Shown here: positions 14,134 through 47,613 of the stretch, piece by piece
Layout of the letters: every line of letters begins with the position of its first letter
Numbering within the stretch: the first letter of the stretch is position 1
DNA from: Adenophora triphylla var. japonica
Taxonomy: Eukaryota > Streptophyta > Magnoliopsida > Asterales > Campanulaceae
DNA length: 64,000 nucleotides
NCBI GenBank assembly: GCA_022495995.1
Contig: JAFEMH010007517.1
Span: forward strand, 1-64,000
Direction of reading: 5' to 3'
Program-made: the position numbers and the translations under genes
Notes under the pieces: model-generated
What the model was told of the DNA's origin: nothing
The model's database searches: none
What the model saw: only the letters and a program-made list of their open reading frames with translations

Positions 14134-15899
14134 TGTAAGTGCTCCAATTTGAGCTTGTTAGTATTTTCGTTAGAAAATTAACAAAAGTTATAAAATTTCT
14201 AACAATTCCTAAACAATCCTAACATTTCTAACAAAGTGAGGGTAAAATGGGCATTGTTATTTAAGGTTAAACCTCAAAAAGAATCTTAAAAAGCAAAACA
14301 AAGGAAGAAAACCAAAAATAGCAATGGCTGGAAACATAAAACTGGCTGTTAATTTGAATTTTCAAAAGAAATATTCCTCTTGTCCAAAGCCCGAAGCCGC
14401 ATTTAATGAACAAAGGCACGCCGAAGGGACCTATCCGCGCGGATGAGTTTGTCATTTCAGAGGGCTATAAATTGAGCCCTCCAAATACAAAAATAAGGAG
14501 CCACAACACCAATTGCACCGAACCTCGGCGAAATATAGAGAGAAAACAAAGGAGAATTCTTCAAGAATTGTCACCATTTTCTCTCCAATCTTTCCCAACT
14601 CACACTCATCCACTCACTCTCATATTTAAGCCTTAAACACTCATACACTCAAGCCAAAAACTCAAGAACACAAGGAAGATTGGTAAACCCTCCTTCTCCT
14701 TACCCTAAACTCCAACCATGCATGCATTTGCAAACTACAAAATGTAGTTCTTTCATCTTCTTGCTTTAGATCTAAGAAGATCACCATGGAAGACCATCTC
14801 CATGGATGATCTTCTACAAAGATCAAAATTATTTTCAAGTTCTCTTACTTTCTTGCAAAGAAAACTCATTTTCAAAACCCTAAAACCATTTTCAAGCATC
14901 AAATCTCATTTTCAAAGGATAAAAATCCCCTTCCCAAGCAAATGAAATGCTTAGTCCTAATGTACTCCAAGGATGGTTTGGTATAGTGGATTCACCACTA
15001 AAATGTCTAGTGATCACTAACCAAAACCTAGGGAAATGGGGACAAGCATGGAGGCAAAACCCCTTAAAATCATATTTTCTTTCTTGAGAAGTTGCTGTCC
15101 AGTAGCAATTTTCTCAGACCTCAGTCCATGGTCTAATTTTTTGGACACAGATAAATGTGGAATTTGGTGTTGACTACAAAACACTTTTTGTAGCCAACAT
15201 CCAGATCTTTCCATACATATTTTTACTTTATTTTTTGGGTGAGTAAAACTCCTCTTTTCAAATTTTCTTTCAGAGGCTAGTTCATCAGCTTCTGGGAATC
15301 CAGATCTCATATCTGAGGTTTCCAGAAGGTTTTGACCCCTCAAATCTTCTCCAAAATGGAAAATTCCTTCGCACAAATCTTATTTAAGGTGTCTGGAACA
15401 ACTTTCATTCTCTGAGTTTATCCAGATTATGAAGTTTTAAGACCCTTGAATCCATTTCAAAATCAAAGGTCCACTGCCTTTTTCATTCTGGCAGAAATGG
15501 CTCTCAACTTCAAAAGGTCTTTTGAGTACCAAATCTCAATCCAAAAATCTTCCAAAAAATCATGGGATCAGTTTAAAGTCTTAAAAAGATATCCCAATTT
15601 TTACTTTTCTGAGTTTCAACTTATTTTGGCCAAAACACACACACACACACACACACAAATGATTTTCAGCTTGGAAGACTCGTTTACGAGGCATTCCGGT
15701 GCACACTAACGTCCTTCCCGGCGTGTAACATGACCTCCGAACCCAAATTTCTGATCTCGGGCTTTTTTCAAAGTTTTGGCCCTTAAAACTAAAATGGCGT
15801 GGCGACTCCGTTCTTTTTCCCGGGTCTTATTTGATTTTTTTCAAAGAAACGCGAAAAATCGAATTTCATTCCCGCGAGAAATGGCGACACATCATCACA
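14134..15899 (+). repeat. 5' LTR of element B
   Basis: 1766 bp, starting TGTAAGTGCTCC and ending CATCATCACA. Compared with 31494-33266, differences cluster in the first 350 bp and are rare after that. It contains a promoter near 14433-14473, a CA microsatellite at 15637-15656 and the U5 box TGGCGACTCCG at 15800-15810. Confidence 0.93.
14433..14473 (+). promoter_or_regulatory. LTR promoter of element B: CpG palindrome plus TATA box
   Basis: Perfect palindrome ATCCGCGCGGAT at 14433-14444, the word TTGTCATTTCAG after it, and TATAAATT at 14466-14473, 21 bp beyond the palindrome. The same palindrome occurs before both antisense genes of this element. Probable U3 core promoter with an upstream operator-like site. 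Confidence 0.75.
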
Positions 15900-15900
15900 A

Positions 15901-15918
15901 AGGGCGACTCCCTGGGAC
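15901..15918 (+). other. Primer binding site of element B
   Basis: AGGGCGACTCCCTGGGAC follows the LTR end by one base and corresponds to TGGCGACTCCGCTGGGGAC in C, with a weakened 5' end. The better match to the C primer site is the U5 box at 15800-15810. Confidence 0.75.
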
Positions 15919-17361
15919 TAAGCTTTTTTTTTAAAAAATGGTATTTGGTATATTGGTGGAAACCATTAAACTTCCCGTTACCGCCTCCTAACACGAGTCG
16001 GAGATAAATTGTGGTCTAACAATCCCACGTATCGGTATCACCGTTTTCAAAAAAAAAAAAAAAGCTTTTGAGGGTCAAGCTTCCGTCCCGGCTTTGAAAA
16101 TCATTTTTGTGTGTGTGTTGATTTTTGCACGCTTTCGTGTTGTTTTGGCCGCCTCGGAGAAAGTCAAAATTTTGACCGTCGGAATAATGTCCCTAACTGT
16201 TGGAATTTTCGTGCTTACGTGCTTATGTGCTCATTAAATTTCAAAAAAAAAATTTCAAAAAAAGGATTTTCAAAAAAAAAGAAAATTTTCAAAAAAATCA
16301 TGCATCATATTTTTAAGACACATAAAAAATCTCTATTTTACTCGTAAAAAGAATATAGATCGCTTGCACACTACGCGCACGTGACCGTACACCGCACACT
16401 ACGTCCCTAACCCGGGAAATCCTTGTCGCGGTCCGTTTGGTCTTATTACGCCTCTCGGATGAGCACAGACTACCCAAACATCCCATGGAGCCTCGTGTCG
16501 ACTACGCACTTGTCCGTGACACACTTTGTCCGAGACCCGGTTGGTTTTTAGTCCGGTCCGTGTCATGCCCCGTCTCGTGTATAGACCTTTCCTTTCAAGC
16601 CTTTGTCGGCATACCGACTCAATATCTTTCTGGGACCCTAATCGCCGAAGTTCCGCCGGTTTTCCGCCGCAGACTTTGACCAAGATATTGACCGGCGCCT
16701 TGACTTCGGCTCGACCGGCACAAATTATACACCGACTCCCAAAGATTGACACCGAGTCATCAAGGATTAATGATTATTCCATGCCTAATTACGGCTTAAC
16801 CGACGACAAGTCAAGATCAATCGTGGACATTTATCGCCCAAATCATGCCGACTTTTCGTCGAGCTCCTGACATGATCTTGACTTTTGACGTCGCCTTGTC
16901 CGTAATTTACATCGAATGCTCGTTAAGACTCGATTACCCGCCGACTTTTAGGATCGTTTTTCTTTCGGCCGGTGGGACCCGCTTGCCCTATAGGACCTCG
17001 CCCGGGCCGCCCACCCCGGGAGGTCGAAATACAGGTGGAATACGAGGGGCTTATAGACGTAGTGACGGGGGCCCACCGATCCAGATCCCAGAGTAGTTTG
17101 CGAAAAGAAGAGCAATCTTTTCCAACCGATTAGGTTAATAAAGCATGTTTTAAGTAAACGTGAACAAATAATCGCATGTCGCATGAGCCAAAAGCCCAAA
17201 CACCTACCCTCCTTCCATTCCTGCACATCTCGAACCTTCGTGTCCTTTCCCCCGCAGCCTCCGCACAAAGCTTGGTTTCGGCACCGGTCACCGTTTGATC
17301 GGGCTGGGAAGAGTCAAGCGCATCGTCGCCTTCACCGTTTGTTCCGACTCCGGGTTTCGTA
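15919..17361 (+). other. Untranslated leader of element B
   Basis: 1.4 kb without a recognisable protein. It shares with C the inverted-repeat block ending CAATCCCACGTA (16019-16032; C 34830-34843). It also has the block GCACACTACGCGCAC (16365-16379; C 35293-35307) and the conserved pre-gag block 16966-17160. A-rich runs occur at 16048-16062 and 16240-16300. A regulatory or packaging role is possible but not shown. Confidence 0.65.
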
Positions 17362-19350
17362 ATGTCCGCATCGCCCGGTAATGATGGGGATAACGTCACT
17401 CCGCCTCCCGGACCCCTCGCAGAGCAACAAAGGGAATCGCCAGCGTAACGTATGAGGTTACGACAGAAGCACAAACTAAATGTACTTTACGGAGGCTATT
17501 AAGAGTCACGGTCCGGCCGCCGCCTCAATCCGGATGGCACCTTCACCGTGGAAGAAGACGAGGATGCCAACCCCACTCTCGCCGCCCGATTACACCAGAT
17601 GCCGCCACCCACCTCCTATGGTGCCACTACCGTAACCCATGCTCCTCGATTTTCGGGTCACCAGCCTCCCCAACCACGTACCACCGGATCCATGCAGCCC
17701 GACGGCACAAATCAGCTGGGGCAAAATCGCACGGAATGTCTTCTCATGGTTGGGGCTATCTCTAATGCCACAAATAATCGGGATCCCGCCTCGCCCGGAA
17801 CCGATCAATCCGACCTTCACAAAGAATGTGCCACAGCTCGAATGCCGCCACAACTTGGTTCTCGGGGCCACGCCAGAGCCCCTCCTCGTAACAGCACTAG
17901 TTCACCAAGCTCCTCACACAAATCCATTCCTCACTCGCACTTCTATGGGTTACCAAGCCTCCATCCCGGTGTCATCCGAATCACCAGACCGCAGCATTCT
18001 GTGTTACACACCTTCACCACAGTGCACCATGCAATTCAACAATCCGGACATGCAGCCCCGCACTCAAGCCTACTTACGGGCCCCACTGAAATCCAAGTTA
18101 TCCGGCCACATCGGGCTGCCTCCACCTACTTTGCCGCTTGAAAATCAACAAAGAAGCCGCAAGGTTCTATCCTTTTGCTCGTGCTCCTACTCATGCTCCC
18201 TGTGGTAACTCACCCCAGACAAGTTTTCACCTACGTCCCCGGATCGGCCGTTCCTCCACCCGCCCGCTCCGCTGGTAGCTCCTCTCTAGCTCACCCACTA
18301 GCTTGAATGCCATGGTTCCACCACAAGACCCTCATCTCGGCCCGGTTCATGGAACAACACAAGGAAATGAAAGCGCAGATCGCCGAACCGATCGCCAAGA
18401 AGTCCGCCTTCCGCCTACTGCACCCGACTCCATTGTTCCTCTCGCCCCACAAATTCGTGATGCCTAATCTCGGATCTCTTTGATGGGACCGCATGCCCGA
18501 AAACCCATTTGGACACATATACCTTGGCGATGAAAGCCAAAGGATGTACCAATCGCCAGCTGGCCGACTATTTCGCCTATCCTCAAGTCCAGGCCTTAAA
18601 GTGGTTCTTCCGTTTGAAACCCGGGCCGTGGCCACATGGGACCAGATTACCAATGCCTTCACGTAAAAATATAAGGCCAACTTGGAATGGGAAACAAATA
18701 GAGTTGACCTACAAACAACAAAGCAGTCCCGATGAGAATGTTGGGACTTTTACAAGCGGTGGAATCTCGAAACTCGGAAATGGCCATCCCTCCTTCCGAA
18801 GAGGAACAACCGGACATCTTCCAACATGCTTGAAACCACATCTCGAGAGCCTCCTCGCCACTTCCCATACTCGTACTTACTGCCACGGTTAACTCTCGCA
18901 GCCTAAGTTTGAAAAGGCCTACAATCGCAACCGGCCGCCGCACTCGCCACGTATATCGGGCTCCTCCCGCAAACACCGCCCTCGCTTCCCGCTAAAGGCA
19001 AAGAGATGATTCACTATGCGGGACAGAATGTAACAACACGACTCCTTTTGCTCCCGTAAAACCAGCCGAGCCTGCACCACGGGTCATGAATCTCGAAAAC
19101 TTTGGAATGCCTCGAATGACATCTTTAGGGACTCGGTGAAAGAAGGCTTGCTGCGGCCTTTGGAGAATTTCCAACCCAGTAAATCCGAATGCTCCCGTGG
19201 ATACTACAAAGTATTGTGCTTTTCATCAAGCTCACTGACATCCGATCGACAACCGCTTTACTCGAAAAAGGCAATCCAGGCTAATAGAGCAAGGAAAGTT
19301 GGAAGGCCCCGGGGGCCTAACACGCCAAAAATCCGCCGCCAAGGAACCAT
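17362..19350 (+). pseudogene. gag: gag of element B (broken)
   Basis: Starts MSASPGNDGDNVTPPPGPLA at 17362, about 200 bp after the conserved leader block. A proline-rich N-terminal region follows (17550-18300 in several frames). The capsid core is at about 18470-18680 (HLDTYTLAMKAKGCTNRQLADYF split between frames, then QALKWFFRL). Further capsid helices follow to 18900. The C-terminal Cys/His motif is degraded near 19215 (YCAFHQ). The frame is lost many times, so no full Gag can be made. Gag normally forms the particle that packages the element RNA. Confidence 0.75.
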
Positions 19351-21080
19351 AATCGTGTGAATATGATTGAATGCGGAGAATCTTCGCATGCCCATGAAGA
19401 TGCCGATGAAGGTCCCCAAATACCCGTGGCCAACCTCGTCGAGGATCCCGACTCCGGATTCCCTCACTTGAGGATATCGAACGAATCAACCCATCTTGGT
19501 CTCATGTCGAGACTCCTTGCAAGAATACGAGGCCCGCTATTTTTCGGATGAAGGGAAGGCCAATACCGAAGAGCCGGGGCCGTTCCTGGCCAAAATATGA
19601 GAGGACCATTTACACAAGATGGTTAGAACAATCGAGAAGAATCGAACAAGAAAGCTTCCGCGAGCGCTCAGACGGGGCTTATCAAGAAAGAGGCCGAAGA
19701 GCATCTCGGAGCTAGTACACTTCCACAACCGGCTATTGGAGAAGTCAAATACGACCCCGAAGGCAAAGTGAAACCGAAGAATCGTAGGAGGAAGAACCCT
19801 TCTACATTCTACCCGGTGTTAAATACGTGCCACCCTCTCACTCTTCCCCCGCAATTTCGGGAGGAGAAGCCGAGTCACAATTGCCACTTCCGGAATGGGA
19901 ACATATGACAATTTTGCGGCCGCACGCACCCATATTCCCCAACGGGTTTGATCGGCGTTCCTCTCCGCCGAAATCCCGTAGTATGGGAAGAAGATTCCGA
20001 TGACAGCGATGATGATGATGATGACGAGAGTGAAGAGTCAACCGAGGCCCCGATCCGGAAACAACTGGAACAATCATGCCGTAAATGAGCCCATGGGAGC
20101 CAGTGCACAATGGTCGGTTATCGCAAGAAGCGACGACGAAGAAACTTCGGAAGACGAATATGAGACCGAGGACATGAAGGCCATGAAGTTTCATGGATCT
20201 CGAGCACGTGGATGTCTTAGAATTCAACACCGCCTACCATGCTTGGGAAAGGGTTTTCAGTGTCCGATCCAGCCGATAGTCGAAGATCCGATCGAAAGAG
20301 GAAAATTAACTCCCATCCGCCCAAATGAGAAAATAACCATGGTTAGATCAAATCCACCCTTAACAAAGTAACACTCCTTGTCGTGGTTACCCAAGAAGAG
20401 GTCACCTTCCCCGAATGTATGTCGCCTTTCGTAGAAGTCCTAGAAACCGGCATGATACCGGATGCGCCTCCCACACGTAACGCTATAATCATCTCCAACT
20501 CGAGTATTACGTAAGGGAATCGTAATGGCCGCACTATACCGGGATGAGATCGAAAAGCCGCCGAGTCCCGACAATAGCGACTCTTGTTGCATGATAACTA
20601 TGAGCAAGGCCGGCCATGAGAGTGAATCGGAGGACGCCCTAGCTCAGGCCATCCAAGGGGCAACAACACAACCCCAAACCCAAAAGCTCGTGACTTGGGA
20701 AGCGCTATAAGGGCCGCCAGAAGGAGCCAAGATACCACCTCACCGTCACTAGACTCCGTCGTAACCAAAGGGCCAATAGCCAAAAGGGCTCCCCCGTCGA
20801 CCTTAGCAAAGATTGAAGAAATCCAACCAAGAGACGACGATGAGGAAGTTAATCTGTTGACCCGATCCGGCGCATCTTCCAAGGAAATCCCAAGGCGTAT
20901 AAGAAGGCCACGTATCAAGCACCGAAAGAAGATCGCCGCCCCTACGCTAAGACAAACAAACCTGCACTCGAAAAGAGGATCCCGTGCTCACCCAATGAAG
21001 CAAACACAGCCAACATTTCCTCTCGGTCTCTACTCACCTCGTCCTATCCCCATAAGTCCGAAGCCGGAAGAAAGCCCGGC
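19351..21080 (+). pseudogene. gag-pro linker of element B
   Basis: No catalytic domain. Recognisable features are an acidic run (DSDDSDDDDDDESEES near 20000) and the LEFNTAYHAW word near 20215-20245, shared with A and C. RGKLTPIRP follows near 20307-20333 and a VTLLVVVTQEEVT-like word near 20370. Similar words occur in C at 36980-37170. Function unknown; probably a spacer of the polyprotein. Confidence 0.5.
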
Positions 21081-21720
21081 TCGCACTCGTGCCTATTGAT
21101 GCTACTCCCGATGATGTGGTACAACTAATTGGAAACATCCATTACGGGAATATAATCACTTTCACGTATCTCGACCTCCCTCAATTTGGGGCCGATCATA
21201 ACGAGCCTCTCTTCATCACACCCACTGATGAACGACGCCTCCTCGGGTCCCGGTTGATAATGGGTCCGAATGAACATTCTTCCGCGCAAAGATCATGAGC
21301 TTGCTTGATATCAAGACTACGTACTTGAAGCCTTCCTCCCTCACAGCCAAAGCTTACGACTCAACATCTCGAGCGCCCTGAGTCGCTACTTTAGACCTCT
21401 CGGTTTGGACAGTAAATTGATACCTGTGGAATTCCATGTTATTGACATCCCAATCACTTTTAATGCCTTATTGGGAAGACCTTGGCTGCACCAGTCAAGG
21501 GGGTCGCCTCAAGCCTCCACCAAAGGTGTGAAATTCGCCTCGAATGGGGATCCGACAACCATTTACGGGGATTTAGTCACTTTGGAGGGCACAGATACGG
21601 CGGAATACCTATTCTCGAAATCAAACATGACGAGGAAGGTCTCATGCTAACGGGCTTCACTGGCCGAGCCTCCCAAGGCCCAAGTGTGCAACATAGATTT
21701 GACAATCACTCGGGATAAAA
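21080..21720 (+). pseudogene. Retropepsin-like protease of element B (broken)
   Basis: PIDATPDDVVQLIGNIHYGN (from about 21092), then FGADHNEPLFIT, then an active-site stretch RVPVDNGSE with D-N-G in a shifted frame near 21245-21275, closed by a stop. The C-terminal half IPVEFHVIDIPITFNALLGR leads into PWLH at 21420-21490. It corresponds to PR2 of A. Confidence 0.75.
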
Positions 21721-22911
21721 TCCCACCGGTCTTGAAAATGATGAGAAAGATGAGCTATCTACCCGGCCTCTGGCCCTGGGAAGCACCAACAAGGAACTCA
21801 CAAACTCATCGAGGTGAAAGGACAATACTCGCCACGGCCCGGGATATGAGGCCTCCTCAATGACACCGCAAAAGGAAAAAGATTTGAAGCCGCCACAGAA
21901 AGGTCCCTGGCCGACAACCCTAAATCTCTCCCCTTCGCCCTAATTTGGCCGACTACTTTGTAAAGGGTCCCACACAACCAGAAACATCACAGAGCCCACT
22001 CCTACGGCAGATGGCTAAAGCTACAGTGGATAGCCTCAACAAGTTTAGAGGAACCAAGGCTAACCCGGTCCGTAGAATGTTCCCGGACCTACCCAAGATA
22101 CCCGGGGCTACCACTACCACGAAGAGCGAGTATACCTTCGTAGGCGTGCCTCGACTCCGGTGGAACAGCCGAGAAGCTCACAACCACTATTCCTACCGCC
22201 CAGAAGATCCGAAACCCGAATTCGAACCGACAAAGGCCAAAAGCTAAGGCCACGGAATTTCCTCGATGATTGGGATGGTCTCGGTTATGCAAAGAATTGT
22301 TCGAAGAAGAAGTCCAGTGCCGACCCGATTGATCTCGGCTCGGTCCAAGAGATGATAGCAGAATTGAGAAAGGAAAACAAAACAAAGACAGCTTCCCGAG
22401 TCATGAGGCCACCAACAAAGAAAGCCGCTAAAAATTGGGAAAACCTCTCGTGCCCGTCCGCGACCAAGGAGGAAATGATCACCAAGCTTGGATTGGTCCC
22501 CCGTCCTCAGTGTCAATCTAGGACAAGTCCTCCCAGCCTCTCTTTGTTAAGATCGAGTCTCTAGGGTCGTCCGACGGCCTTACGCCCGAAGACTACGAGT
22601 CCGTAGCAAGCACCGTATTCCCTTTCGTTTTCAATGAAATGACGAACCTTTCGAGTATCCCTCGATTGCCACTTTAACTAATGATGAATTAATTAATAAA
22701 AACTTAATAATAATTCATTAGATAAAGAAGCGTACATTAAACGAAAAAAATCAAACAACAAAAAAATCTTTAAGCAAAGTTGTCCTAAAGAGGAAAATCG
22801 AGCCCAAGCCGCCGAAGAGATTTTGACGAGTGTGAATTTGGGAACCGCGGAAGAGCCTAAAGAGACGCAGATTGGTGATTTCTTCGAAGGAATCGGAAAG
22901 GATGCTCGCAA
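21721..22911 (+). pseudogene. Protease-RT linker of element B up to the deletion point
   Basis: Degraded G-patch region near 21800. The frame 22160-22564 contains ENLSCPSATKEEMITKLGLV. The marker GLTPEDYESVA is near 22575, followed by an AT-rich stretch 22665-22770 and then NRAQAAEEILTSVNLGTAEE and TQIGDFFEGIGKD (22800-22905). In A and C this last word is followed by the RT; here it is not. Confidence 0.65.
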
Positions 22912-23645
22912 AGTCCTACAAAATCCTCAATTCAAAGAAAGTTGCCCTCTTCATCAAAGAGAACATCATATGCAGATACGGTTGCCACCGAAATCATTTC
23001 GTATAATGGATCCCACTTCGAAGGGGAATGTGAAAACCGGCGTAATTCCGAATAACCCGTCACAAGTCATCTCCTTACAGCCCCAAACCAACGGAGCCGT
23101 TGAGGCAAAGAAACAAGACTCGAAAATATCATCCGGAAAATGGCCGCCCAAGGCGTAGATTGGCCCGAGAAGTTACACTGCACTCGGGGCTACGTAACAT
23201 CGCCGAACGGCAACCGGGGAAACACCGTTTGCTCCTCACATACGGAATGGAAGCCGTACTCCCAATCGAGCCGGAAATACCCTCGCTCCGTATACCGCCG
23301 GAAAGCCGATCAACGAGGTCGAATGGCTCCGCAGTCGCCATGACGAATTGGCCCTACTAGATGAACGCCGACCGAAGGCCATGGAACACATCCGAGCCTA
23401 CCAAGGAAGAATGGCCAGCAGCCTTCGACAAGAAAGTAAAGCATCGGGAGATCCGAGAAGGTGATCTCGTTTTGAAAGAAAAGCCCCTGGCCCGTATCAA
23501 CCCCTCGGCAAATGGGAGCCCGTATGGGTCGGGCCATATGTCGTCCGTAAGATCTTCTCCTGAGGAGCCATGCAACTTGCACCTCGACGGAATCCCTTTG
23601 TACACCCAAAGGAATGGTGACAAGCCGCGCGTATACTACGCGTAA
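22912..23645 (+). pseudogene. Truncated integrase fused to the pre-RT linker, element B
   Basis: Directly after GDFFEGIGKD the sequence becomes integrase core (SYKILNSKK, VALFIKENIICRYG in shifting frames, 22912-22985). It continues with a degraded SDNGSHFEGE-like stretch, PKPNGAVEA near 23090, WPEKLHCTRGYVTSPN near 23160, the C-terminal KVKHREIREGDLVLKEKPLA (23433-23492) and a stop at 23643-23645. RT, both RNases H and the zinc-binding half of integrase are missing, about 2.4 kb relative to C. Clear internal deletion. Confidence 0.85.
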
Positions 23646-23740
23646 AAAAAAAAAAAAAGAAAAAAAAAGAGTGCTAAAAGAGTAATACCCAACTAGGTTG
23701 AAAACCCGAAAAGGGCGGCCTAGGTAAAAACAGGTTGCAC

Positions 23741-23776
<36 letters not shown>

Positions 23777-23815
23777 AAAAAAAAAACAACAAAAAAAAAA
23801 AAAAAAAAAAAATCA
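23646..23815. repeat. A-rich tract between convergent genes, element B
   Basis: Runs of A at 23644-23669 and 23739-23811 flank the word AGTGCTAAAAGAGTAATACCC and GGGCGGCCTAGG. It lies between the plus-strand pol stop and the end of the minus-strand aORF2. C has the same arrangement with shorter runs. Confidence 0.8.
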
Positions 23816-23820
23816 AAGTT

Positions 23821-23873
23821 GAACTACGAAGACCCGAGCTCCTCAAAATGAGGGGAACGTAGGCAAATGAAAC
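23821..23873 (+). other. Conserved stem-loop, copy 1 of element B
   Basis: GAACTACG..AACGTAGG can pair (CTACG with CGTAG), with an inner stem CCTC/GAGG. Related stem-loops lie at 30625-30670 and 31343-31385 in B and at three matching places in C. Confidence 0.65.
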
Positions 23874-24001
23874 GGTTCGGTCTAAAACACAAATAAAAGC
23901 CATACTTTGACATCAATACAATTGATCGTACCATGAAAGCGTCTCGAAAAACTCTAAAGCAATTCAAATATTCATTACAAGTTAAAAGCTCTTTGATGAG
24001 T

Positions 24002-25604
24002 CTAAGCCCGATTCATTCCTACAACCGGCAACCTCGCTAAAAGAAAACTAAGATACATAATCAAACTAATGTGTCTCGCCATGACAAGAAAGGGATACTG
24101 AAACCTCGTAGTCACTCCAAGCCACTCGTATCGGCCTCTCCCCTCTTCTTCCCCTTCGAGTCTTCTTTTTCCGAACCGGAAAATGTCGTTTCCTCCTACC
24201 AAGCTCGGTATAGGAACAGGATCTATCAAACCAGCCTCCGCTGTGGCCTTAGTAGCCCTAGCGTCATCTCTCATCTCCCGTAGCCTAGCCGGTAGCATAG
24301 GAGCCCTCCTCTCCCGTCTCTTGACGTAAGCCTCATAGTCGGCCGCGCGTCTCCGCTCCTATCATGAGGGTTGGCCCTCGCCTCGGCCCTCCTCCTCTCG
24401 TAAACAACAGTCCTCCGCACCCACAATGGCCTCACGCCGTCTCAAAATAGCCACCTCGAGTCTCTCCTGCATGCCTCTCATACCAATCCAGTACCAAGTG
24501 GTCAAGAACACCGGTCTGACGCCCGAGAATAACCCGAGGAGGAAAGGCATCATACCTCCATGCTCGGGAAAGAAATGGAAACACCGAGGGATCATCCATA
24601 GAAACAGGAGCCACCACCCCGGTGGCTATATCATCAAAGTCCCTCCAAAGGAACTCTCGCTTCCAAGCCAAACTGTCTCGTAACTAAAGCCGGAATATAG
24701 AAGCCGGACCGAGAAAGCCCCTAAGCATGACCACACGAGACCCATCCTCAAGCACTCGCGAGTCTCCACCCGCCAACAAGGCACCGACCATCTCGATATC
24801 TTCTCGTCCGGAGACCAGCCATCCAACGCTCCCATGAGCCCCGATCATCAAAATCCACAAGAACCCCCTCCCGGCAAATGTCCAAGGCTTCGATCATGTC
24901 GGGAGTTTCCCGAAGAATCCCCAAACGCTCCATCGCCCACATGGTCAAGAGGAACGGGCCGCCCCCGCGCATATACCGTCTTCCGGTAGCGCCTATCAAG
25001 AGCATGAAAAGTCTCCCCAAAATCAAAGGAACGACATCTCTCGCCTGTGCGACAAAGCGAACGACAACATCTAGCAAAGATCGATGGCAAATCCCAAAGG
25101 AATAGACCATGAACAGGTGCCAAACATACAAAGTGCAAAGGCATCCCAATAGGCATCATCCACCAAGCCTAGGCCCCTAAACCTATCGGGAAGACCGGAA
25201 ATATCGAAATGATCGGGACCGCGGATCATACCTTGCGCTTCCTCCGGAAAGATGAAGGAGGACGCACAATCCGTCAACAAAAGAAGCCCCTCCGGCAAAG
25301 GAACCGCTATCTCTTCCACCTCCGACCTCCAAGCAAGGCCCGAAATTCTTCGACAATGGAACAATCTCGTTGAAGGAAAGGCAAAAGACATGCCTTCTAG
25401 TGTCCCAAAATGAGGAAGAAGCCCTCAAAAGCTCATAATCCGAATCAATTCCTTGAGAGACCATAAGCACTTCACCTTGTACCTTTCTTCAAAGAAGGAC
25501 CTCCTCTCATGCATAATCTCCCTAGACCAATCCTTGAACTTGTTGAAGAATGACATTTGGGATTCTTGGGACAATTTTGATGGAGCTTTTCTAAAGTTTT
25601 CCAT
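24002..25604 (-). pseudogene. aORF2 of element B: antisense gene, DUF7745/PMD-like
   Basis: Read on the minus strand from ATG at 25604 (MENFRKAPSKLSQ) to about 24002. Early on it reads FKDWSREIMHERRSFFEERY and KVKCLWSLKEL. An FWD..HVF word (LLRASSSFWDTRRHVFC, near 25390) follows, then IVPL, then AYWDAFALCMFG (near 25140). Next comes VVPLILGRLFMLL with GGGPFLLTMWAMERLG (near 24920-25030), then FLSRAWRYDAFPP and a Lys/Arg/Glu-rich tail. This order (hydrophobic helix, FWDP-like word, I-P-LILAET-like word, W-ERLG) recalls the DUF7745 / plant mobile domain relatives; I infer the family from motifs alone. Several frameshifts. Molecular function unknown. C has a homologous gene at the same place. 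Confidence 0.55.
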
Positions 25605-25696
25605 GGTTTTTCTCTCTTTCTCCCGAAAATGGTCCGTTTGACTCGGAGGTTGAAGAGGATATTTGAATTTGAAATAAAGTGAGACCAGATCCAAGC

Positions 25697-25739
25697 AAAA
25701 TTAAAGGACAATGTCGATGCAGACCCCATCCGCGCGGAC
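25697..25739 (-). promoter_or_regulatory. Putative aORF2 promoter of element B: CpG palindrome and TATA-like box
   Basis: ATCCGCGCGGAC (25728-25739), followed on the plus strand by ATTGTCATTTCC, is nearly identical to the LTR promoter site. On the minus strand a weak TATA-like CCTTTAATTTT (25697-25707) lies 20 bp beyond the palindrome, and the ATG at 25604 about 95 bp further. Confidence 0.6.
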
Positions 25740-25924
25740 ATGATTGTCATTTCCATCGTAAAATCTCGCAAACCCAAGCCGCTACACCAAAAGAGGAATA
25801 TTCCGTCCCGTTGCTCGAAACCCGTGCAAAAACCTCCCCAAACCACCCATATACCAAACACTAACACCCTTGCCAAAAAAACAAGGCTCATGCAACACCG
25901 CATTCATACCGCATTGCATTCATA

Positions 25925-26100
25925 AAATAAAATCCTAAATTATTACATTCCAAAAAAAAAAAGAGTATGCAAAAAAAAACAAACAAACATCAATAAAATC
26001 CTAAATTATTACATCCAAAAAAAAAAAAAAAAAAAAAAATGTGCATAAGCTGCACAAATCTCAATCCTACCATAAATCTCAAAATCTCGAAAATCGCCTA
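25925..26100. other. Spacer between the two antisense genes, element B
   Basis: AT-rich with long A runs (25952-25978, 26016-26039). The word AAAATCCTAAATTATTACAT occurs twice (25927 and 25996). No gene is seen. Confidence 0.6.
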
Positions 26101-26130
26101 AAAAAATCGTGGGGGTAATCAATCGAATCC

Positions 26131-29005
26131 CTAGCGCCCGATGCCGCCCCGCCTCTTGCGACTCGGGCCCGCTCTCCTCAGAGCCCCGAAAATCTCGGGC
26201 TCGTAATCGTCCTCGTCTCCGCAAAGAGGCTCGTCAGACCAACCGGCACGCTCCGATAGGGCAAGCCGAGATCTCGCGAAAAATCGTATCCAAAGGTGAA
26301 GGCGTCGGACTCCCGGACGTACGAAGACGACCCACCATGCCGCCAAACGTGTCCCCGCCCGTGTGGATCCCCGAGAATGACGTGATCCGAAGGCGCACCG
26401 CGCTGGGATCAAGGAGAGGAGACAGAGGAGTCTCTCGAAGAAGTCTCGAGCGAATAGGGGAAGCCTCCCGTCCGACAGCGCCGCCGTGGTCGCTCGCTCT
26501 AGCTCGAGGAGCCCCGCAAGCGACCATCCTCCCGATGAATCTCTTAGCTCCGATCACTTGCTTCGTCGCCTTCGACGACCACCTCCGAAAACCGCACAAA
26601 AGCAAAAGCGTCAAAAAGGAAGTGATGCTAAAGATGATGAAACAAAAGAAAGAAAGGAAGAGGCGTAAGCGTAAAAGCCATACCTTCATACTCCTGACGA
26701 GGCCGGAAAGCTCGTGGAAGCCGCTCAGCCGAGGGATCTGCACCCTCAATCGGACCCCATCCTCGGGATATATGAAAATCCGTCCGAGGGTACCGCGGAT
26801 CCCAAGCCCTCTCTATCCGTAACCCGAGGCATCCTCGCCTCCTCAAGACGAATGTCGCATATGGCTCGCCGCCACGAAATGCCGAGAAGTGCCGGCCGCT
26901 CGTAATCATCCTGTGTCACGGACCGATCACTGGGTGCATCATATCGGCGGGAGGCTCCACCGGTGTCCTCAAAGGCGAGTTCACGCCATGCCGGCGCGTC
27001 ACCCTCTCTCCTGCATAATATGCATCGCAGTCGACCTCTCGTAATCCTCCGCCGCACACCCAAATCTCGCCGCCTTCACCGCGCCACCTCGAAGCGATCC
27101 TGTGGGAAGAATATCATCCCCTCATCCGTCTCGGCCTCCGTCAAAGGAAGGCAATCCGCGTACTCGAGAGTCGTACGCCCCGGAGCTTATCTTCTCCCGG
27201 CATGCTTGGACCAAGAATGCATGGCCGGATACGCCCGACGTACTCCGCCGGCCGCCGCCACATCGTGACGTGGAAAAACTCCAACGCCCATACCGCGAAA
27301 GGTAAAAATCAAATCAATCCAAAGGCAAAGAAAAGTGTGTGCTCAAAAAAAAGAAAGAGGGAAAGCAAAAAGAGAGCTTATACCTCCAGTGGCAAACTCA
27401 AAGCAAGACAAGGAGCTCACAGCCTTCCTGGCCGTACCTATCGAGAGCAAAGTAAAGCTCGCGCCCGGCCTCTCCCCACGAGACATCTCCGACCGTCTCC
27501 ATGTCCTCCAAGGACCTCAACAAGGCAAAGACCGCCGTCCTCAAAGCATGTCCAAAGAGGGTGCTCGAAAAGGCAAACCACAAGAAGGCCCTAGCAACTG
27601 ATCGGCGCCTATCCTCTCCTCCCCACCTCGTAACTCACGATGGTCTCCACAATCTTCCCGTAGACCACCGCATACTCCATCCCCATCCCCTTTTGGGAAT
27701 AGGGAAAATCCCGTAAGAGCTCAGATCCGCATCGCCGTAGCCATCCCGCCACTCAATGCTGCGTCCATTAAAGGACAAACCCGTGATCGCAGCAGATAAT
27801 CGGAGGGCGTAACCGTAGCCTCGCCCCGTAAGAAGTGAAAGGTGTGGGTCGCATCCCACCAATGCCGCGCCAAAGCAAACATCGTGCCCTTGCTCTTAGG
27901 GAACTTGACCAGTCCCCTCAAGCACTCAACGAACTCCCAAAGCCCCGTCTCAACAACAATCTGTCTCGGACTCGGCAAAGCTCCTCGGCCCACATCCGGA
28001 AGCCGATCCCCCAGGTCAACTACGGACTCCACCGATCCTCGAGTCTTCATTTTGTTCACCGCCCGTCACAAAACGGTTTCCGCCCCGCAAAAAAAAAAAA
28101 AAAAAAAGAAGAGAGAAAATGTCAAAAAAAAAAATTTGCATTTGCATTTACACAAAAAAAAAAAAAGCATACACATGCATTAAAAAAAAAAATTTCAGCA
28201 TGACAGCATACAATAGACATAGCCCCATTTTTCTCGCATAAAAGACAAGCCAAAGAAATCCCATTCAACAATTTTCAATAAAAAAAAAATGCATACATGC
28301 ATATCCTACAAGAAGTTGACGGAAATAAAACTCCGTCCCATTTTCAAAAAAAAAATGCATACATGCATATCATCCATCTTACATGCAACGGGAGGAAAAA
28401 TCCGTCCCACTTTTCAAAAAAAAATCCTAAACATACATACATCTCATATTGGCAAAATGCCCATTCTTTCCAAACAAAATGCATGCATTGCATCATTCAT
28501 CAATATCAATATTCAATTTCAAAAAAAAAAAATCATCATCACAATTTTCGAATTTTCAACATGCAATATTCAAATTTCAAAAAAAAAAAATCAAAGTCAC
28601 AATTCATAATTTTCGAATTTACAAAAAAAAATGGCGAAAAGGCCAATTCTTTCTCCAAGCAAAATGCATATTTTGGGATACCCACATAATCATTGCAACA
28701 TGCAAAGCATCAAAATCAAGATTCAAAGCCAAGAACATCAATCATTCGAATTTTCAAAAAAAAAAATTCAAAAATCACCCAAAATTCAAATTTCAAACAA
28801 GAAATCAACAAAGGGAATGAAAAGATTCGAAGTATACCGTTCGGAGACTCGGATCAGAAGCCCAATGTTGCCAAGCATCGGGGTAGGGCTCTTCCGCAAT
28901 CGATTGCGAAAAAGTATAATGCCTCCTCATCCGGACGAGCTCCAATCGTCTCTCCGCCACCGGGCCACGTCCTTGGCCTTGAAAAGCGCCTTCCCCGTGT
29001 TCCAT
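26131..29005 (-). pseudogene. aORF1 of element B: antisense plant mobile domain (PMD) gene
   Basis: Minus strand. Exon 1 (29005-28838) opens MEHGEGAFQGQGRGPVAERR and continues LELVRMRRHYTF. It ends at a GT donor. Intron 1 is the A/T-rich stretch 28080-28837. Exon 2 carries the PMD signature: FALARHWWDATHTFHFLRGE then ATVTPSDYLL (near 27860), and VSWGEAGRELYFALDR (near 27450). It ends at a second GT donor (27383). The last part (27290-26131) reads LAFEDTGGASRRYD and ends in an acidic then basic tail (GDEDDYEPE..KRRGG) before the stop. PMD occurs in host MAIN/MAIL1 proteins and is known from plant transposable elements; its biochemical role is unclear. There is a frameshift near 27815, and I see no clear AG acceptors in B. 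Confidence 0.7.
28080..28837 (-). other. Probable intron 1 of aORF1, element B
   Basis: Low-complexity DNA with many A runs and repeated ATGCATACATGCATATC-like words. It lies exactly where C has a 576 bp intron with GT and AG ends. The donor GGTATAC is at 28832-28838 (minus). The expected acceptor after the long T run near 28085 reads TTTGCGGGG where TTTGCAG would be expected, so it may be mutated. Confidence 0.55.
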
Positions 29006-29138
29006 TGCTCAAAAATCGAAGAAAATCGGAAGATTTCGAAGCTTTTTTGCCCAACAATGGCGGTTTTTTCTGAGTTTTCTCTCTTCCTCTCTCGTAATTT
29101 TCGTAAAAACAGACTGGGAAGGAGAAAGGGGCGGCCCT

Positions 29139-29177
29139 CATTTAAAAACCCCGGAACACGCTCCTATCCGCGCGGAT
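29139..29177 (-). promoter_or_regulatory. Putative aORF1 promoter of element B: CpG palindrome and TATA-like box
   Basis: Perfect ATCCGCGCGGAT at 29166-29177, followed on the plus strand by ATTGTCGTGG. On the minus strand TTTTTAAATG (29139-29148) lies 17 bp beyond the palindrome, and the ATG at 29005 lies about 135 bp beyond that. Same layout as the LTR promoter of this element. Confidence 0.65.
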
Positions 29178-29280
29178 AGGGATTGTCGTGGTCAAAATGA
29201 CCCTTTTGCCCCTTAAAATTCCGTGACTCGCAATTCTCCCCAACTTGACAGAGTTAACCAAAGTTAACCAAAGTCAGCTC

Positions 29281-30530: not shown

Positions 30531-30624
30531 AATACGTCCAATTTTTTCCCCAAAGAAAGGCTAACAAAATCCCCAAAGAAAGTTAACGGAATCCCAAAAG
30601 CCAACGGAATCTCGAGTAGTACTC

Positions 30625-31493: not shown

Positions 31494-33266
31494 CGTAAGT
31501 GCTCCAATTTGAGCTTGTTAGAATTTTCGTTAGAAAATTAACGAAAGTTATAACATTTCTAACAATTCCTAACAATTCTAACTTTTCTAACAAAGTGAGG
31601 GTAAAATGGGCATTGTTATTTAAGGTTAAACCTCAAAAAGAATCTTAAAAAGCAAAACAAAAGGAAGAAAACCAAAAATAGAAATGGTCAGAAACATAAA
31701 CTGGCCGTTAATTTGAATTTTCAAAAGAAATATTCCTCTTGTCCAAAGCCCGAAGCCGCATTTAATGAACAAAGGCACGCCGAAGGATCCCATCCGCGCG
31801 GATGAGTTTGTCATTTTCAGAGGGCTATAAATTGAGCCCTCCAAATACAAAAATAAGGAGCCACAACACCAATTGCACCGAACCTCTGGCGAAATATAGA
31901 GAGAAAACAAAGTGAGAATTCTTCAAGAATTGTCACCATTTTCTCTCCAATCTTTCCCAACTCACACTCATCCACTCACTCTCATATTTAAGCCTTAAAC
32001 ACTCATACACTCAAGCCAAAAACTCAAGAACACAAGGAAGATTGGTAAACCCTCCTTCTCCTTACCCTAAACTCCAACCATGCATGCATTTGCAAACTAC
32101 AAAATGTAGTTCTTTCATCTTCTTGCTTTAGATCTAAGAAGATCACCATGGAAGACCATCTTCCATGGATGATCTTCTACAAAGATCAAAATTATTTTCA
32201 AGTTCTCTTACTTTCTTGCAAAGAAAACTCATTTTCAAAACCCTAAAAACCATTTTCAAGCATCAAATCTCATTTTCAAAGGATAAAAATCCCCTTCCCA
32301 AGCAAATGAAATGCTTAGTCCTAATGTACTTAAGGATGGTTTGGTATAGTTGATTCACCACTAAAATGTCAAGTGATCACTAACCAAAACCTAGGGAAAT
32401 GGGGACAAGCATGGATGCAAAACCCCTTAAAATCATATTTTCTTTCTTGAGAAGTTGCTGTCCAGTAGCAATTTTCTCAGACCTCAGTCCATGGTCTAAT
32501 TTTTTGGACACAGATAAATGTGGAATTTGGTGTTGACTACAAAACACTTTTTGTAGCCAACATCCAGATCTTTCCATACATATTTTTACTTTATTTTTTG
32601 GGTGAGTAAAACTCCTCTTTTCAAATTTTCTTTCAGAGGCTAGTTCATCAGCTTCTGGGAATCCAGATCTCATATCTGAGGTTTCCAGAAGGTTTTGACC
32701 CCTCAAATCTTCTCCAAAATGGAAAATTCCTTCGCACAAATCTTATTTAAGGTGTCTGGAACAACTTTCATTCTCTGAGTTTATCCAGATTATGAAGTTT
32801 TAAGACCCTTGAATCCATTTCAAAATCAAAGGTCCACTGCCTTTTTCATTCTGGCAGAAATGGCTCTCAACTTCAAAAGGTCTTTTGAGTACCAAATCTC
32901 AATCCAAAAATCTTCCAAAAATTCATGGGATCAGTTTAAAGTCTTGAAAAGATATCCCAATTTTTACTTTTCTGAGTTTCAAATTATTTTGGCCAAAACA
33001 CATACACACACACACACACAAATGATTTTCAGCTTGGAAGACTCGTTTTACGAGGCATTCCGGGTGCACACTAACGTCCTTCCCGGCGTGTAACATGACC
33101 TCCGAACCCAAATTTCTGATCCCGGGCTTTTTTCAAAGTTTTGTCCCTTAAAACAAAAATGGCGTGGCGACTCCGTTCTTTTTTCCCGGGTCTTATTTGG
33201 TTTTTTTCAAAGAAACGCGAAAAAATCGAATTTCATTCCCGCGAGAAATGGCGACACATCATCACA
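31494..33266 (+). repeat. 3' LTR of element B
   Basis: Homologous to 14134-15899 throughout. The first two bases read CG where the 5' copy has TG. Promoter palindrome at 31792-31803 and TATA at 31826-31833; U5 box at 33165-33175; ends CATCATCACA followed by the target duplication. Confidence 0.93.
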
Positions 33267-33271: not shown

Positions 33272-34686
33272 GGATAATGCCGCACGGCTGCATTAGCTCG
33301 AGGTCCCTAGCCGCACGGCTTCATTGGCAATTTCCAGACTGCCTATAAATAGAGCCCTCCTCTACCCATTTTAAAACAACAAAACCAACCCAAAAACACT
33401 CATAATACGTGAAGAAACCTCCCAAGAACAGCTGGAAGTTCAAGAAGGTGAAGAAGAAGCTCAAGAAGTCATCTCCCTCCTCCTTGAAGGCTCAAGATCA
33501 ATCCTCTCCTCCTAGCTTCATCCAAAGAAGAAAAGGAAGCCATTGGTAACCTCACACGCCCTAACCTTGCATCTTAATTGCTCTATAATTGCTCATTGCA
33601 TTGCTTTTATCTTGCTTGGGACTTGGTAGATTAAAGATCATATCTTTATATTCCCCCTTCCCCTTTGCATGCATTAGGCACCATTTGCCATTAAAAATGT
33701 AGTCTTTATCCATAAAGGTGCATCCTTTGCACCTAAAACCCCTATTTTCCAATAAAAATGTCATCTTTATGCATCCTTTGCATATAAAAATCAAATCTTT
33801 TCAATAAAAATGCATCCTTTGCATTCAAAATCCCTTTTTCAAGCATCATTTGCTTTAAAGATCATGTCTTTACCATAAACTAGCATCTTATGCTTTTCAA
33901 AATGCAATCTTTATGCATCCTTTGCATATTGAATTCCAAAAATGCATCATTTGCATAAAAATTGTGTCTTTATGCATCATTTGCAATAAAGAACATTTCT
34001 TTAAATCAAAATGCATCCTTTGCAACCCAAAAATGTCATCTTTTCATTAAAAATGTCATTTTTACATGCATTCCCCCATTCCCCATTAATAACCTCGGAA
34101 CGGACCGGTGTAAAAGATCCTATCTTTACATTGTTCCTTCCATAAAGGTTTCATAATCTCTTTAAAAAGGGACACCTTTGAACCCTATATCTCCGATTAT
34201 CACTTAAGATGAGTATGAAGCATCTATATGAGCTCGACCATCTTAAAGTGTAGGATTGATGGGCTAAGGACCCTCCTTTTCTAAAGAACCTCATCTTTGA
34301 CTATAAAGAGAGTCATTCTCTCGATCACACAAGCCCCGAGGTCTAAAAAATGCGATGATCACAAGTCTAAGATGAGGATGGGATCATAATCCCAAATACA
34401 TAAAATCCAAGAAATCCCGAGCGACAACCAACAAATGGTTTGTACGTCCGGAAGACGACTTGGGACATTCCCTCCTTATTTTCAAACACATGCACACAAG
34501 AAAGCACGCAAGCAAGCACGATTAATGGGATCTTGGGAGACTTGCTTCGGCAAGGCACCTTGGGTGAACGACGATCCGTTCTTCCCAAGGGGCGTGGCGA
34601 CTCCGTTTTTCAAATTAAACCGGATGTCTTCAAACTCGCGTGAATCCAACAAACAAACAAAAAAAAAATTTGGGCACACATTCACA
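33272..34686 (+). repeat. 5' LTR of element C, second part
   Basis: Aligns with 49857-51380 of the 3' LTR and ends TTCACA before the primer site. It holds the promoter, then at 33600-34080 many degenerate copies of ATGCATCCTTTGCAT separated by short A/T words. Relative to the 3' LTR it lacks about 65 bp before GGCGTGGCGACTCC (34601). Confidence 0.9.
33279..33352 (+). promoter_or_regulatory. LTR promoter of element C: two GCCGCACGGC sites and TATA box
   Basis: GCCGCACGGC at 33279-33288 (followed by TGCATTAG) and 33310-33319 (followed by TTCATTGG). TATAAATAG at 33344-33352 starts 24 bp after the second site. The same pair recurs before aORF2 and, diverged, before aORF1. The 3' LTR has it at 49864-49873, 49895-49904 and 49927-49934. 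Confidence 0.75.
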
Positions 34687-45344: not shown

Positions 45345-45424
45345 TTTTATTCAGTAAAATAACCAGCTTCAGACAGAATCGTAAGCCGCACGGCTTCATT
45401 TGCCCTCGGACAAAACCGCACGGC
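45345..45424 (-). promoter_or_regulatory. Putative aORF2 promoter of element C: paired CpG palindromes and TATA-like box
   Basis: GCCGCACGGC (45385-45394, then TTCATTTGCC) and ACCGCACGGC (45415-45424, then CACATTAGCC) repeat the LTR pair and its trailing words. On the minus strand TATTTTA/GAATAAAA (45345-45362) lies 23-33 bp beyond the nearer site and about 100 bp before the ATG. Confidence 0.65.
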
Positions 45425-46860: not shown

Positions 46861-46955
46861 CTGCACTCCGCATGTTCAAAACATCAAAAGGGTCATTTCT
46901 CTTTCATAAAAGTCTCAAAGACAAGAAAAGAAAGAGAAAAGAAAGAGGAGACTAC
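46861..46955 (-). other. Intron 2 of aORF1, element C
   Basis: 95 bp on the minus strand. The donor GAGGTAGT and acceptor GTGCAG give GT..AG ends, with a pyrimidine-rich middle. B has the same donor context (CCACTGGAGGTATAAGC) at 27376-27392. Confidence 0.6.
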
Positions 46956-47613
46956 CTCAAGTGGCAAATGAAAAGCAATCCATGGAAGCAAATCTTGTTC
47001 CGCCGTACATGCATCCAAAGAGAAGTATATCTCCGCCAATCCGGCCTCTCCCCAAGAGACCGTCCCTATCCCATCCACATTCTCCGCAGAGTCGAGGAGG
47101 CAAGTCATGGCCGTGTCCTGCACTAGCAAAAATGGTGACCGATAGCATCAACCACACAAAGGCTCTAGCCACTCAAGGGCCACATCGCTAACGGCAAAGT
47201 CCCGTATGCGCTTCGGGATCGCCACCTCGACATTCCGCGTCTCCATACCTGCCCTTGGGAATCAGCTCAAACCCGACCAAAGCTCCGAACTCCTCCGCCG
47301 TGATATGGTCTCTCCAAGTCACGGGCCTCCCAGCTGAACCGTAGACCAAGATAGCCGTGAAATCGCCGGGAGTCACCGTCGCCTCTCCCACTCGTATGGA
47401 AGCTATGAGTGCTATCCCACCAAAACTCGATAGGGCCTCGGACCAAGCCCTCGCTCTTCGAGGTGATGTGGATCCCCGCCGATAGCCTCGATGAATAAAT
47501 CTAGGACGGTAGCCCGCACCACCGCTTGGGATTTACCCCATTCTTCTCGAAATCCTGCATCCTCTCGCCAAAGTCCCGACCGCTATCTCGTATGGTCCTC
47601 TAGACTTGTTCTC

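What the first reader, a model, noticed from the sequence alone, without database searches (positions are those of the whole stretch)
14433..29177. One CpG palindrome marks the LTR promoter and both antisense promoters of element B
ATCCGCGCGGAT (one terminal mismatch in one copy) occurs at 14433, 25728, 29166 and 31792. I saw no other copy. In the LTR it lies 21 bp upstream of the TATA box. At 25728 and 29166 it lies 20 and 17 bp upstream of TATA-like boxes on the minus strand, before aORF2 and aORF1. All copies are followed on the plus strand by (A/T)TTGTC(A/G)T. A shared operator would let one factor control gag-pol and the two antisense genes together.
Basis: partly seen in the sequence, partly recalled or inferred. 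Interest (0 to 1): 0.88.

Follow-up and report, generated by a model that had tools for sequence, protein, structure and literature searches.

The report
Palindromic switch shared by three promoters
A giant jumping element, likely from a plant, carries the same short DNA palindrome at a nearly fixed distance from the TATA box of its main promoter and from TATA-like boxes of two predicted backward-running promoters, and a related element carries an altered palindrome at all the same places, so one protein, likely made by the element itself, would switch all three on or off together.

Summary
Confirmed and extended. ATCCGCGCGGAT lies at 14433, 25728 (one terminal mismatch), 29166 and 31792 and nowhere else in the window (0.09 expected). 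The window's own 2.48 Gb genome holds 12,110 copies against 316 of the reversed string; of 40 copies read, 33 are at LTR or antisense promoters of this family, 5 inside related LTRs, and 2 at a C-like LTR promoter. The core recurs at the LTR promoter and at both antisense promoters (aORF1 = PMD, aORF2 = DUF7745) in copies not chosen for it, 21-22 bp from the LTR TATA and 19-24 bp from antisense TATA-like boxes. Strongest new point: the related element C, into whose LTR element B is inserted, has the same three-promoter layout with a different palindrome, AGCCG(C/T)ACGGCT, at its LTR and at both antisense promoters. The half-site thus differs (TCCG/GCCG) at all three promoters together, as expected if one co-evolving factor reads them. 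Likely that factor is an antisense-gene product, working like foamy-virus Tas or Arabidopsis VANC. Binding, transcription starts and direction of regulation are untested, and only two families were compared. TTGTC is conserved only as (A/T)TTG. No such operator appeared in the paper searches made.

The parts
14134..15899 (+). 5' LTR of element B (target-site duplication ACAAG at 14129-14133)
   Evidence: self-BLAST; ends checked
31494..33266 (+). 3' LTR of element B (target-site duplication ACAAG at 33267-33271)
14433..14444 (.). palindrome ATCCGCGCGGAT of the 5' LTR promoter
   Evidence: TATA at 14466
31792..31803 (.). palindrome ATCCGCGCGGAT of the 3' LTR
   Evidence: TATA at 31826
29166..29177 (.). 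palindrome ATCCGCGCGGAT of the predicted aORF1 (PMD) antisense promoter
   Evidence: conserved in other copies
29140..29146 (-). TATA-like TTTAAAT of the predicted aORF1 promoter
25728..25739 (.). palindrome ATCCGCGCGGAC of the predicted aORF2 (DUF7745) antisense promoter
   Evidence: conserved in other copies
25699..25705 (-). TATA-like TTTAATT of the predicted aORF2 promoter
24115..25605 (-). aORF2, homologue of the DUF7745 (PF24924) protein open in L017; frame broken in this copy
   Evidence: tblastn; Pfam of L017 and L019
26134..29008 (-). aORF1, plant mobile domain (PF10536) in pieces; probably spliced (inference); frame broken in this copy
33309..33320 (.). element C 5' LTR palindrome AGCCGCACGGCT; second copy GCCGCACGGC at 33279-33288; TATA at 33344
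49894..49905 (.). element C 3' LTR palindrome AGCCGCACGGCC; second copy GCCGCACGGC at 49864-49873; TATA at 49927
45384..45395 (.). element C palindrome AGCCGCACGGCT of the predicted aORF2 antisense promoter; second, imperfect copy ACCGCACGGC at 45415-45424
48505..48516 (.). element C palindrome AGCCGTACGGCT of the predicted aORF1 antisense promoter
43912..45156 (-). element C aORF2 homologue (32% identity to the L017 protein, E 1.5e-40)
   Evidence: tblastn; no Pfam hit for the single pieces
46953..47566 (-). element C aORF1 homologue (26-45% identity in three pieces, best E 5.2e-16)
   Evidence: tblastn; no Pfam hit for the single pieces

Best explanation
The palindrome is a conserved, family-specific DNA site, likely an operator, at the predicted LTR promoter and at two predicted antisense promoters of these retrotransposons, and one dimeric factor, likely encoded by the element's own antisense genes (aORF2 DUF7745 or aORF1 PMD), is predicted to bind it and so to control gag-pol and the antisense genes together. 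Shown: its place, near-fixed spacing to TATA or TATA-like boxes, retention of its core in copies not chosen for it, and a matched difference of half-site (TCCG in family B, GCCG in family C) at all three promoters. Inferred: the dimer is read from the dyad symmetry. The likely action is activation or anti-silencing, with feedback on the factor's own gene, because the sites lie just upstream of TATA rather than over it; repression is not excluded. The three CpGs would make the B-type site sensitive to methylation.
For: Window: 4 sites, 0.09 expected. Genome: 12,110 places against 316 reversed; followed by N4-TTGTC 1,815 against 0. Of 40 places read (40 of the 43 not already held among the first 50 listed), 16 are family-B LTR promoters, 11 aORF2, 6 aORF1, 5 lie inside LTRs of B relatives, 2 at a C-like LTR promoter by a short match. 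aORF1 promoters, found in 13 of the 14 loci taken by their LTR pair: core CCGCGCGG exact in 10 of 13 (9 of 12 without L017, whose site was already visible), the other three differing only by C-to-T or G-to-A at CpGs; aORF2: exact in 9 of 11. LTR promoters chosen by TATA context: 12 of 35 exact 12-mer by coordinates; of 20 others read, TCCGCGCGGA in 16, one core change in 4, C-type in 0. Spacing: LTR 22 bp in 40 of 43, 21 bp in 3; aORF1 19-21 bp in 21 of 21; aORF2 20-24 bp in 14 of 14 (see full report for an offset of one). CpGs of the palindrome kept in 85-100% of copies; of 14 other CpGs nearby, 10 kept in 31% or less. Family C: 54 of 100 context-chosen LTR promoters have exact AGCCGYACGGCT; of the first 20 of the other 46, core GCCGNNCGGC intact in 13, one change in 5, two in 2, B-type in 0. 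C aORF1 5 of 5 and aORF2 5 of 5 with aligned flanks carry C-type; 2 of 12 stretches had no promoter flank. B and C proteins are homologues at 26-45% identity. Without the palindrome, LTR and aORF1 promoter flanks of B are not alike (z 0.25).
Against: No binding, transcript or methylation data. No known DNA-binding domain was recognised in either protein; the structure prediction of aORF2 failed (mean pLDDT 35.7) and the solved-structure search gave nothing for aORF2 and only chance-level hits for aORF1. Some flank stretches are as conserved as the core (15 and 11 of 135 windows), and CpG retention was scored against the window copy, so CpGs private to the window count as lost elsewhere. A C-like family (L075, L076) has B-type half-sites, and its antisense promoters could not be read. 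Second sites in C aORF2 promoters are sometimes hybrids (ATCCGCACGGCT in L038 and L039). Only two families were compared, so the co-variation rests on one split. Antisense flanks of B and C align only weakly (z 1.1 for aORF1, 2.9 for aORF2), so change in place is firm only for the LTR (z 6.2, one C LTR used). The planned search for C-type palindromes in B promoter context did not complete.
Confidence: 0.5

Rival explanations
1. A host transcription factor reads the palindrome; the element carries its site at every promoter to be expressed in the same cells, and B and C use related host factors (for example paralogues) with different half-site preference.
For: Multi-copy sites, near-fixed spacing to TATA and CpG retention would look the same. 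Many plant LTRs use host factors (general knowledge).
Against: 0 of 40 copies read lie outside sequence assigned to these elements, although a host site should also occur at host genes; the sample is small, comes from the first contigs, and host genes were not annotated. A clean split of two types between families at all three promoters needs two host factors.
Confidence: 0.3
2. The palindrome is a core-promoter element of these promoters, read by general initiation machinery, not a regulatory operator.
For: Near-fixed distance of 19-24 bp to TATA or TATA-like boxes in both directions; the LTR also has a conserved CATTTAATGAAC on the far side of the site.
Against: Two alternative half-sites, and tandem pairs mostly 29-33 bp apart, suit a sequence-specific dimer better than general machinery; the 40 copies read all lie in sequence assigned to these elements.
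Confidence: 0.1
3. The aORF products are repressors: the site is a feedback brake, like a phage repressor operator, that holds copy number down.
For: The PMD proteins MAIN and MAIL1 are needed for TE silencing in Arabidopsis (PMC7156037, passages). The site sits at the factor's own predicted promoters.
Against: The site lies 19-24 bp upstream of TATA rather than over it; MAIN and MAIL1 are also needed for expression of a set of genes, and the motif linked to them (CATGCAGTTT at MORC1, PMC9899485, passages) is unlike this palindrome.
Confidence: 0.07
4. Shared ancestry without function: three promoters descend from one module and the palindrome is a relic.
For: Weak flank similarity of B LTR to B aORF2 (z 2.2) and C aORF1 to C aORF2 (z 2.7).
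Against: Neighbouring bases decay while the core stays; LTR and aORF1 flanks of B share nothing (z 0.25); 12,110 against 316 places.
Confidence: 0.03

Closest known systems
Foamy virus Tas (Bel-1) with the 5' LTR and the internal promoter
   Same: A DNA-binding protein encoded by the element binds both the LTR and the internal promoter that drives its own gene; nuclear localization needed (prototype foamy virus); BTas forms dimers (PMC4929722, passages).
   Different: There the internal promoter runs in sense (recalled); here two antisense promoters, a 10-12 bp CpG palindrome common to all three, and proteins of other families. No binding shown here.
VANC anti-silencing proteins of Arabidopsis VANDAL transposons
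   Same: Element-encoded protein; short family-specific target motifs in non-coding regions that changed together with the protein; motifs as tandem repeats (PMC5735166, abstract and passages; VANC21 YAGTATTAY, VANC6 AGTTGTCC or AGTTGTAC).
   Different: VANDALs are DNA transposons (recalled); VANC has DUF1985 and DUF287, here PMD and DUF7745; VANC motifs as given are not palindromes.
Antisense ORFs of Retand/Tat-lineage Ty3/gypsy elements (Grande gene23, RIRE2, Retand; TRP28 domain)
   Same: Long pol-3' LTR region with antisense ORFs and tandem repeats; gene23 has its own promoter and a nuclear product; a regulatory DNA-binding role is proposed (PMC11963269, parts 1-3 of 5; PMC7264820, passages).
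   Different: Pfam found PMD and DUF7745, not TRP28 (PF04195), in the antisense pieces scanned; no shared operator is described in the text that I read.
MAIN/MAIL1 plant mobile domain proteins and the DOWN motif
   Same: Same domain family (PF10536) as aORF1; linked to a promoter motif (PMC7156037, PMC9899485, passages).
   Different: The instance given, CATGCAGTTT at MORC1, is not this palindrome; whether the MAIN/MAIL1 complex contacts chromatin is stated as unknown there.

Membership tests
LTR retrotransposon | two LTRs and a short target-site duplication | tested here: met
   LTRs 97.9% identical; ACAAG on both sides
Ty3/gypsy, Tat/Retand-like lineage | reverse transcriptase phylogeny | not tested
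   No match to the neighbouring element's RT in this copy of B; that RT, at 10602-11510, is RVT_1; no tree was built
Ty3/gypsy, Tat/Retand-like lineage | antisense ORFs between pol and 3' LTR | tested here: met
   PMD and DUF7745 antisense coding
Ty3/gypsy, Tat/Retand-like lineage | TRP28 (PF04195) antisense domain, in 97% of Retand clusters (PMC11963269) | tested here: not met
   Not found among the 20 antisense pieces scanned, many of them from broken frames
Foamy-virus-type transactivator system | one element-encoded protein binds LTR and internal promoter | not testable with these tools
   Shared site shown; binding not
Foamy-virus-type transactivator system | same site at LTR and at the promoters of the regulator genes | tested here: met
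   the antisense promoters are predicted, not mapped
VANC-type anti-silencing | family-specific target motifs that co-diverge with the encoded protein | tested here: inconclusive
   B TCCG against C GCCG at three promoters, proteins 26-45% identical; one family split only, and L075/L076 are unresolved
VANC-type anti-silencing | VANC domains DUF1985 and DUF287 | tested here: not met
   Pfam gives DUF7745 and PMD instead
VANC-type anti-silencing | loss of DNA methylation at targets | not testable with these tools
   no methylation data
MAIN/MAIL1 DOWN motif | DOWN motif, given as CATGCAGTTT at MORC1 | tested here: not met
   The palindrome is unlike that instance (passage)

The most novel reading that the evidence does not exclude
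Giant plant retrotransposons of this kind carry their own gene-regulatory circuit: an antisense-encoded, dimeric, sequence-specific regulator and a cognate palindrome at every promoter of the element. Lineages have separated into mutually insulated specificities (TCCG and GCCG half-sites) by changing protein and all operators together, so that each family commands only its own copies.
Probability: 0.42. Interest if true: 0.87.

Novelty: new variant of a known kind. Interest (0 to 1): 0.76.

Why it matters
The role of the antisense genes of these elements is an open question stated in print (PMC11963269, PMC7264820). A specific predicted DNA target, with a natural specificity pair (B and C sites), turns it into a simple binding and reporter test. 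If true, LTR retrotransposons of plants would have evolved self-encoded, family-specific transcriptional circuits comparable to VANC and foamy-virus Tas, and would offer orthogonal operator and regulator pairs.

Tried and rejected
Structure prediction of aORF2 from 7 sequences gave mean pLDDT 35.7; not used, and no fold search was made. Search of solved structures by sequence: nothing for aORF2, three chance-level hits for the aORF1 PMD piece. A protein search for aORF2 gave 4 relatives, too few for a tree. Link to the MAIN/MAIL1 DOWN motif rejected (CATGCAGTTT at MORC1). Palindromes with A or C in place of T or G at half-site position 2, 14-40 bp from GGCTCWATTTATAG (the TATA context read in reverse): none in the genome. 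L081, meant to show the antisense promoters of the L075 family, held nested pieces and was uninformative. Single C pieces gave no Pfam hit; homology was shown by tblastn instead. Nine of ten sense pieces scanned, eight of them from B, gave no Pfam hit. Paper searches made; bear on the question whether such an operator is in print, and none of their listings showed one (listings only, except for the papers named in the full report).
Full report
OBSERVATION. The 12-mer ATCCGCGCGGAT, with at most one mismatch, occurs at 14433, 25728, 29166 and 31792 only (4 found, 0.09 expected; nine with up to two mismatches, 2.13 expected). 14433 and 31792 are one site in two LTRs (14134-15899 and 31494-33266, 97.9% identical, TSD ACAAG). 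Element B is inserted in the 5' LTR of element C.

THE GENES. In this copy the antisense frames are broken. In other copies they are better kept: aORF2 is open in L017 from an ATG for 501 residues and, with its upstream frame, matches DUF7745 (PF24924, E 2.2e-10); aORF1 pieces match the plant mobile domain (PF10536, E 1.5e-22 in L013). aORF1 looks spliced (inference from separate pieces in order). Both have basic stretches near the C-terminal end (KKKTRRGKKRG in aORF2, SRKRDRG in aORF1 pieces), which suggest nuclear import (inference).

CONSERVATION AT THE THREE PLACES. The window's genome is held (2.48 Gb, unnamed; probably a flowering plant, an inference from the PMD/DUF7745 families). ATCCGCGCGGAT followed by N4-TTGTC has 1,815 matches and 0 for the reversed pattern. 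The 12-mer alone has 12,110 places against 316 reversed. From the list I fetched 20 stretches of 9-10 kb. Fourteen of them (L009-L022) were taken for their pair of LTR sites, so their antisense sites were in general not selected, though their LTR sites were; the aORF1 site of L017 was already visible. aORF1 flanks were found in 13 of 14: CCGCGCGG is exact in 10 (9 of 12 without L017), and L013, L014 and L018 differ by C-to-T or G-to-A changes at CpGs. aORF2 flanks were found in 10 of 14 by the flank test, and L018 was added from a direct palindrome scan: the core is exact in 9 of 11, L011 has a 2-bp deletion and L018 has CCGCACGG. In these alignments the three palindrome CpGs are kept in 85-92% (aORF1) and 91-100% (aORF2) of copies. 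The other eight CpGs of the aORF1 window are kept in 0, 0, 0, 8, 8, 8, 31 and 92%, and the other six of the aORF2 window in 18, 27, 27, 73, 73 and 73%. These CpGs are those of the window copy, so CpGs private to it count as lost. Identity of the core is 96-97%; the 15 bp on either side average 53-67%. Some flank windows are equally conserved (15 and 11 of 135 windows), so the core is not the only conserved block.

LTR PROMOTERS CHOSEN BY TATA CONTEXT. GAGGGCTATAAATTGAGCC occurs 9,121 times. Of the 35 on contigs C1-C4, 12 have an exact 12-mer in place, by matching coordinates, whose list is complete for these contigs (recounted; my working note said 11). I read 18 of the other 23, plus one each on C5 and C6: TCCGCGCGGA in 16 of 20, one change in the core in 4 of 20, none of C-type. 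The outermost pair varies, so the conserved unit is the 10-mer.

SPACING. Palindrome end to TATA start in the LTR: 22 bp in 20 of 23 and 21 bp in 3 of 23 sites of the fetched loci (most of these found by the palindrome), and 22 bp in the 20 of 20 just described (one search printed 21 for these because the script counted from one base too early; GAGGGC is six bases). Antisense TATA-like box: 19-21 bp in 21 of 21 aORF1 sites, 20-24 bp in 14 of 14 aORF2 sites (sought 8-40 bp away with several spellings chosen by me, so the range is partly by construction). After the palindrome only (A/T)TTG is kept at +4 to +7 (19 of 20), not TTGTC(A/G)T.

WHERE ELSE. Of the first 50 listed exact places (contigs C1-C5), 7 were already held and 40 of the other 43 were read: 16 family-B LTR promoters, 11 aORF2, 6 aORF1, 2 that match a C LTR over only 37-47 bp but have a TATA layout (L075, L076), 5 without a promoter match. 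These five lie inside LTRs of B relatives, between stretches matching about 14.9-15.1 and 15.6-15.7 kb of the window. No place outside such elements was seen among the 40; host genes were not annotated.

ELEMENT C. Element C has the same anatomy with another palindrome: AGCCGCACGGCT upstream of its LTR TATA (33309), AGCCGCACGGCT before its DUF7745-like antisense gene (45384) and AGCCGTACGGCT before its PMD-like one (48505). Its proteins are remote homologues of B's (32% for aORF2; 26-45% for three aORF1 pieces). In other C copies, 5 of 5 aORF1 and 5 of 5 aORF2 promoters with aligned flanks have the C-type palindrome; two of the twelve stretches fetched (L034, L040) had no promoter flank match. 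At the LTR, 3,679 genome matches against 0 reversed. Of 100 listed C promoters chosen by TATA context (5,928 in all), 54 have an exact AGCCGYACGGCT; of the first 20 of the other 46, the core GCCGNNCGGC is intact in 13, one change in 5, two in 2, and none is B-type. No promoter with A or C at that half-site position was found in the GGCTCWATTTATAG context. The planned search for C-type palindromes in B context did not complete.

TANDEM SITES. Twenty-one of 22 close pairs of core-like sites lie 29-33 bp apart, ten of them 31, that is about three helical turns: in C promoters, in the C-like LTR, in one aORF2 promoter of a B relative (L048, read) and inside LTRs of B relatives. Many of these pairs are copies of one another.

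ORIGIN. With the palindrome removed, B and C LTR promoters are clearly related (median z 6.2, one C LTR), B LTR and B aORF1 are not (0.25), and the other comparisons between classes are weak (-0.7 to 2.9). So at the LTR the half-site changed in place, and B LTR and aORF1 promoters share little but the palindrome and a TATA-like box.

MECHANISM. An inverted repeat of two 5-bp half-sites suggests a dimer (inference). One difference of half-site type shared by three promoters within each family suggests one reader per family that changed with its sites (inference, from one split). The element's antisense proteins are the obvious candidates because the genes lie under the same site; no DNA-binding domain is recognised and nothing here shows binding. 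The position upstream of TATA favours activation or anti-silencing; PMD proteins of Arabidopsis are tied to both gene expression and silencing (PMC7156037, PMC9899485, passages). Rivals are listed with probabilities.

LITERATURE. Seen: PMC11963269 (parts 1-3 of 5 and a term search), PMC7264820, PMC7156037, PMC9899485, PMC5735166 and PMC4929722 (passages), PMC10398659 (outline and abstract). Retand antisense ORFs and a suspected regulatory role are known; a shared family-specific operator was not seen in the listings. Subscription papers (for example on Grande gene23) were not seen.

CHECK.

Noticed in passing
window 22886-22908: Element B lacks about 2.4 kb of pol relative to element C (39982-42437), and the neighbouring element's RT finds no match in B: this copy looks non-autonomous.
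   Followed up: partly
window 14134-33266: Element B sits inside the 5' LTR of element C, just upstream of C's palindromes and TATA, with TSD ACAAG.
   Followed up: yes
window 29290-30524 and 30740-31090: Two tandem arrays (about 72 bp and 30 bp units) between the aORF1 promoter and the 3' LTR; no palindrome match with at most one mismatch lies in them.
   Followed up: no
L041, L051, L052, L053, L077: B-related families carry the palindrome deep inside the LTR as well, with a second, often degenerate copy 31-32 bp away in the four where it was measured (not L041); role unknown.
   Followed up: partly
L027 about 4101 and L028 4001: In L027 the LTR palindrome is flanked by TTGTC on both sides, and in L028 nearly so, making a longer dyad.
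   Followed up: no
L075, L076: A C-like LTR family with tandem B-type half-sites 33 bp apart: half-site type and LTR lineage may come apart.
   Followed up: partly
window 15168-15199: Imperfect inverted repeat TGTTGACTACAAAA...TTTTGTAGCCAACA in the LTR.
   Followed up: no
window 29190-29202 and homologous loci: Conserved GGTCAAAATGACC inverted repeat beside the aORF1 palindrome.
   Followed up: no
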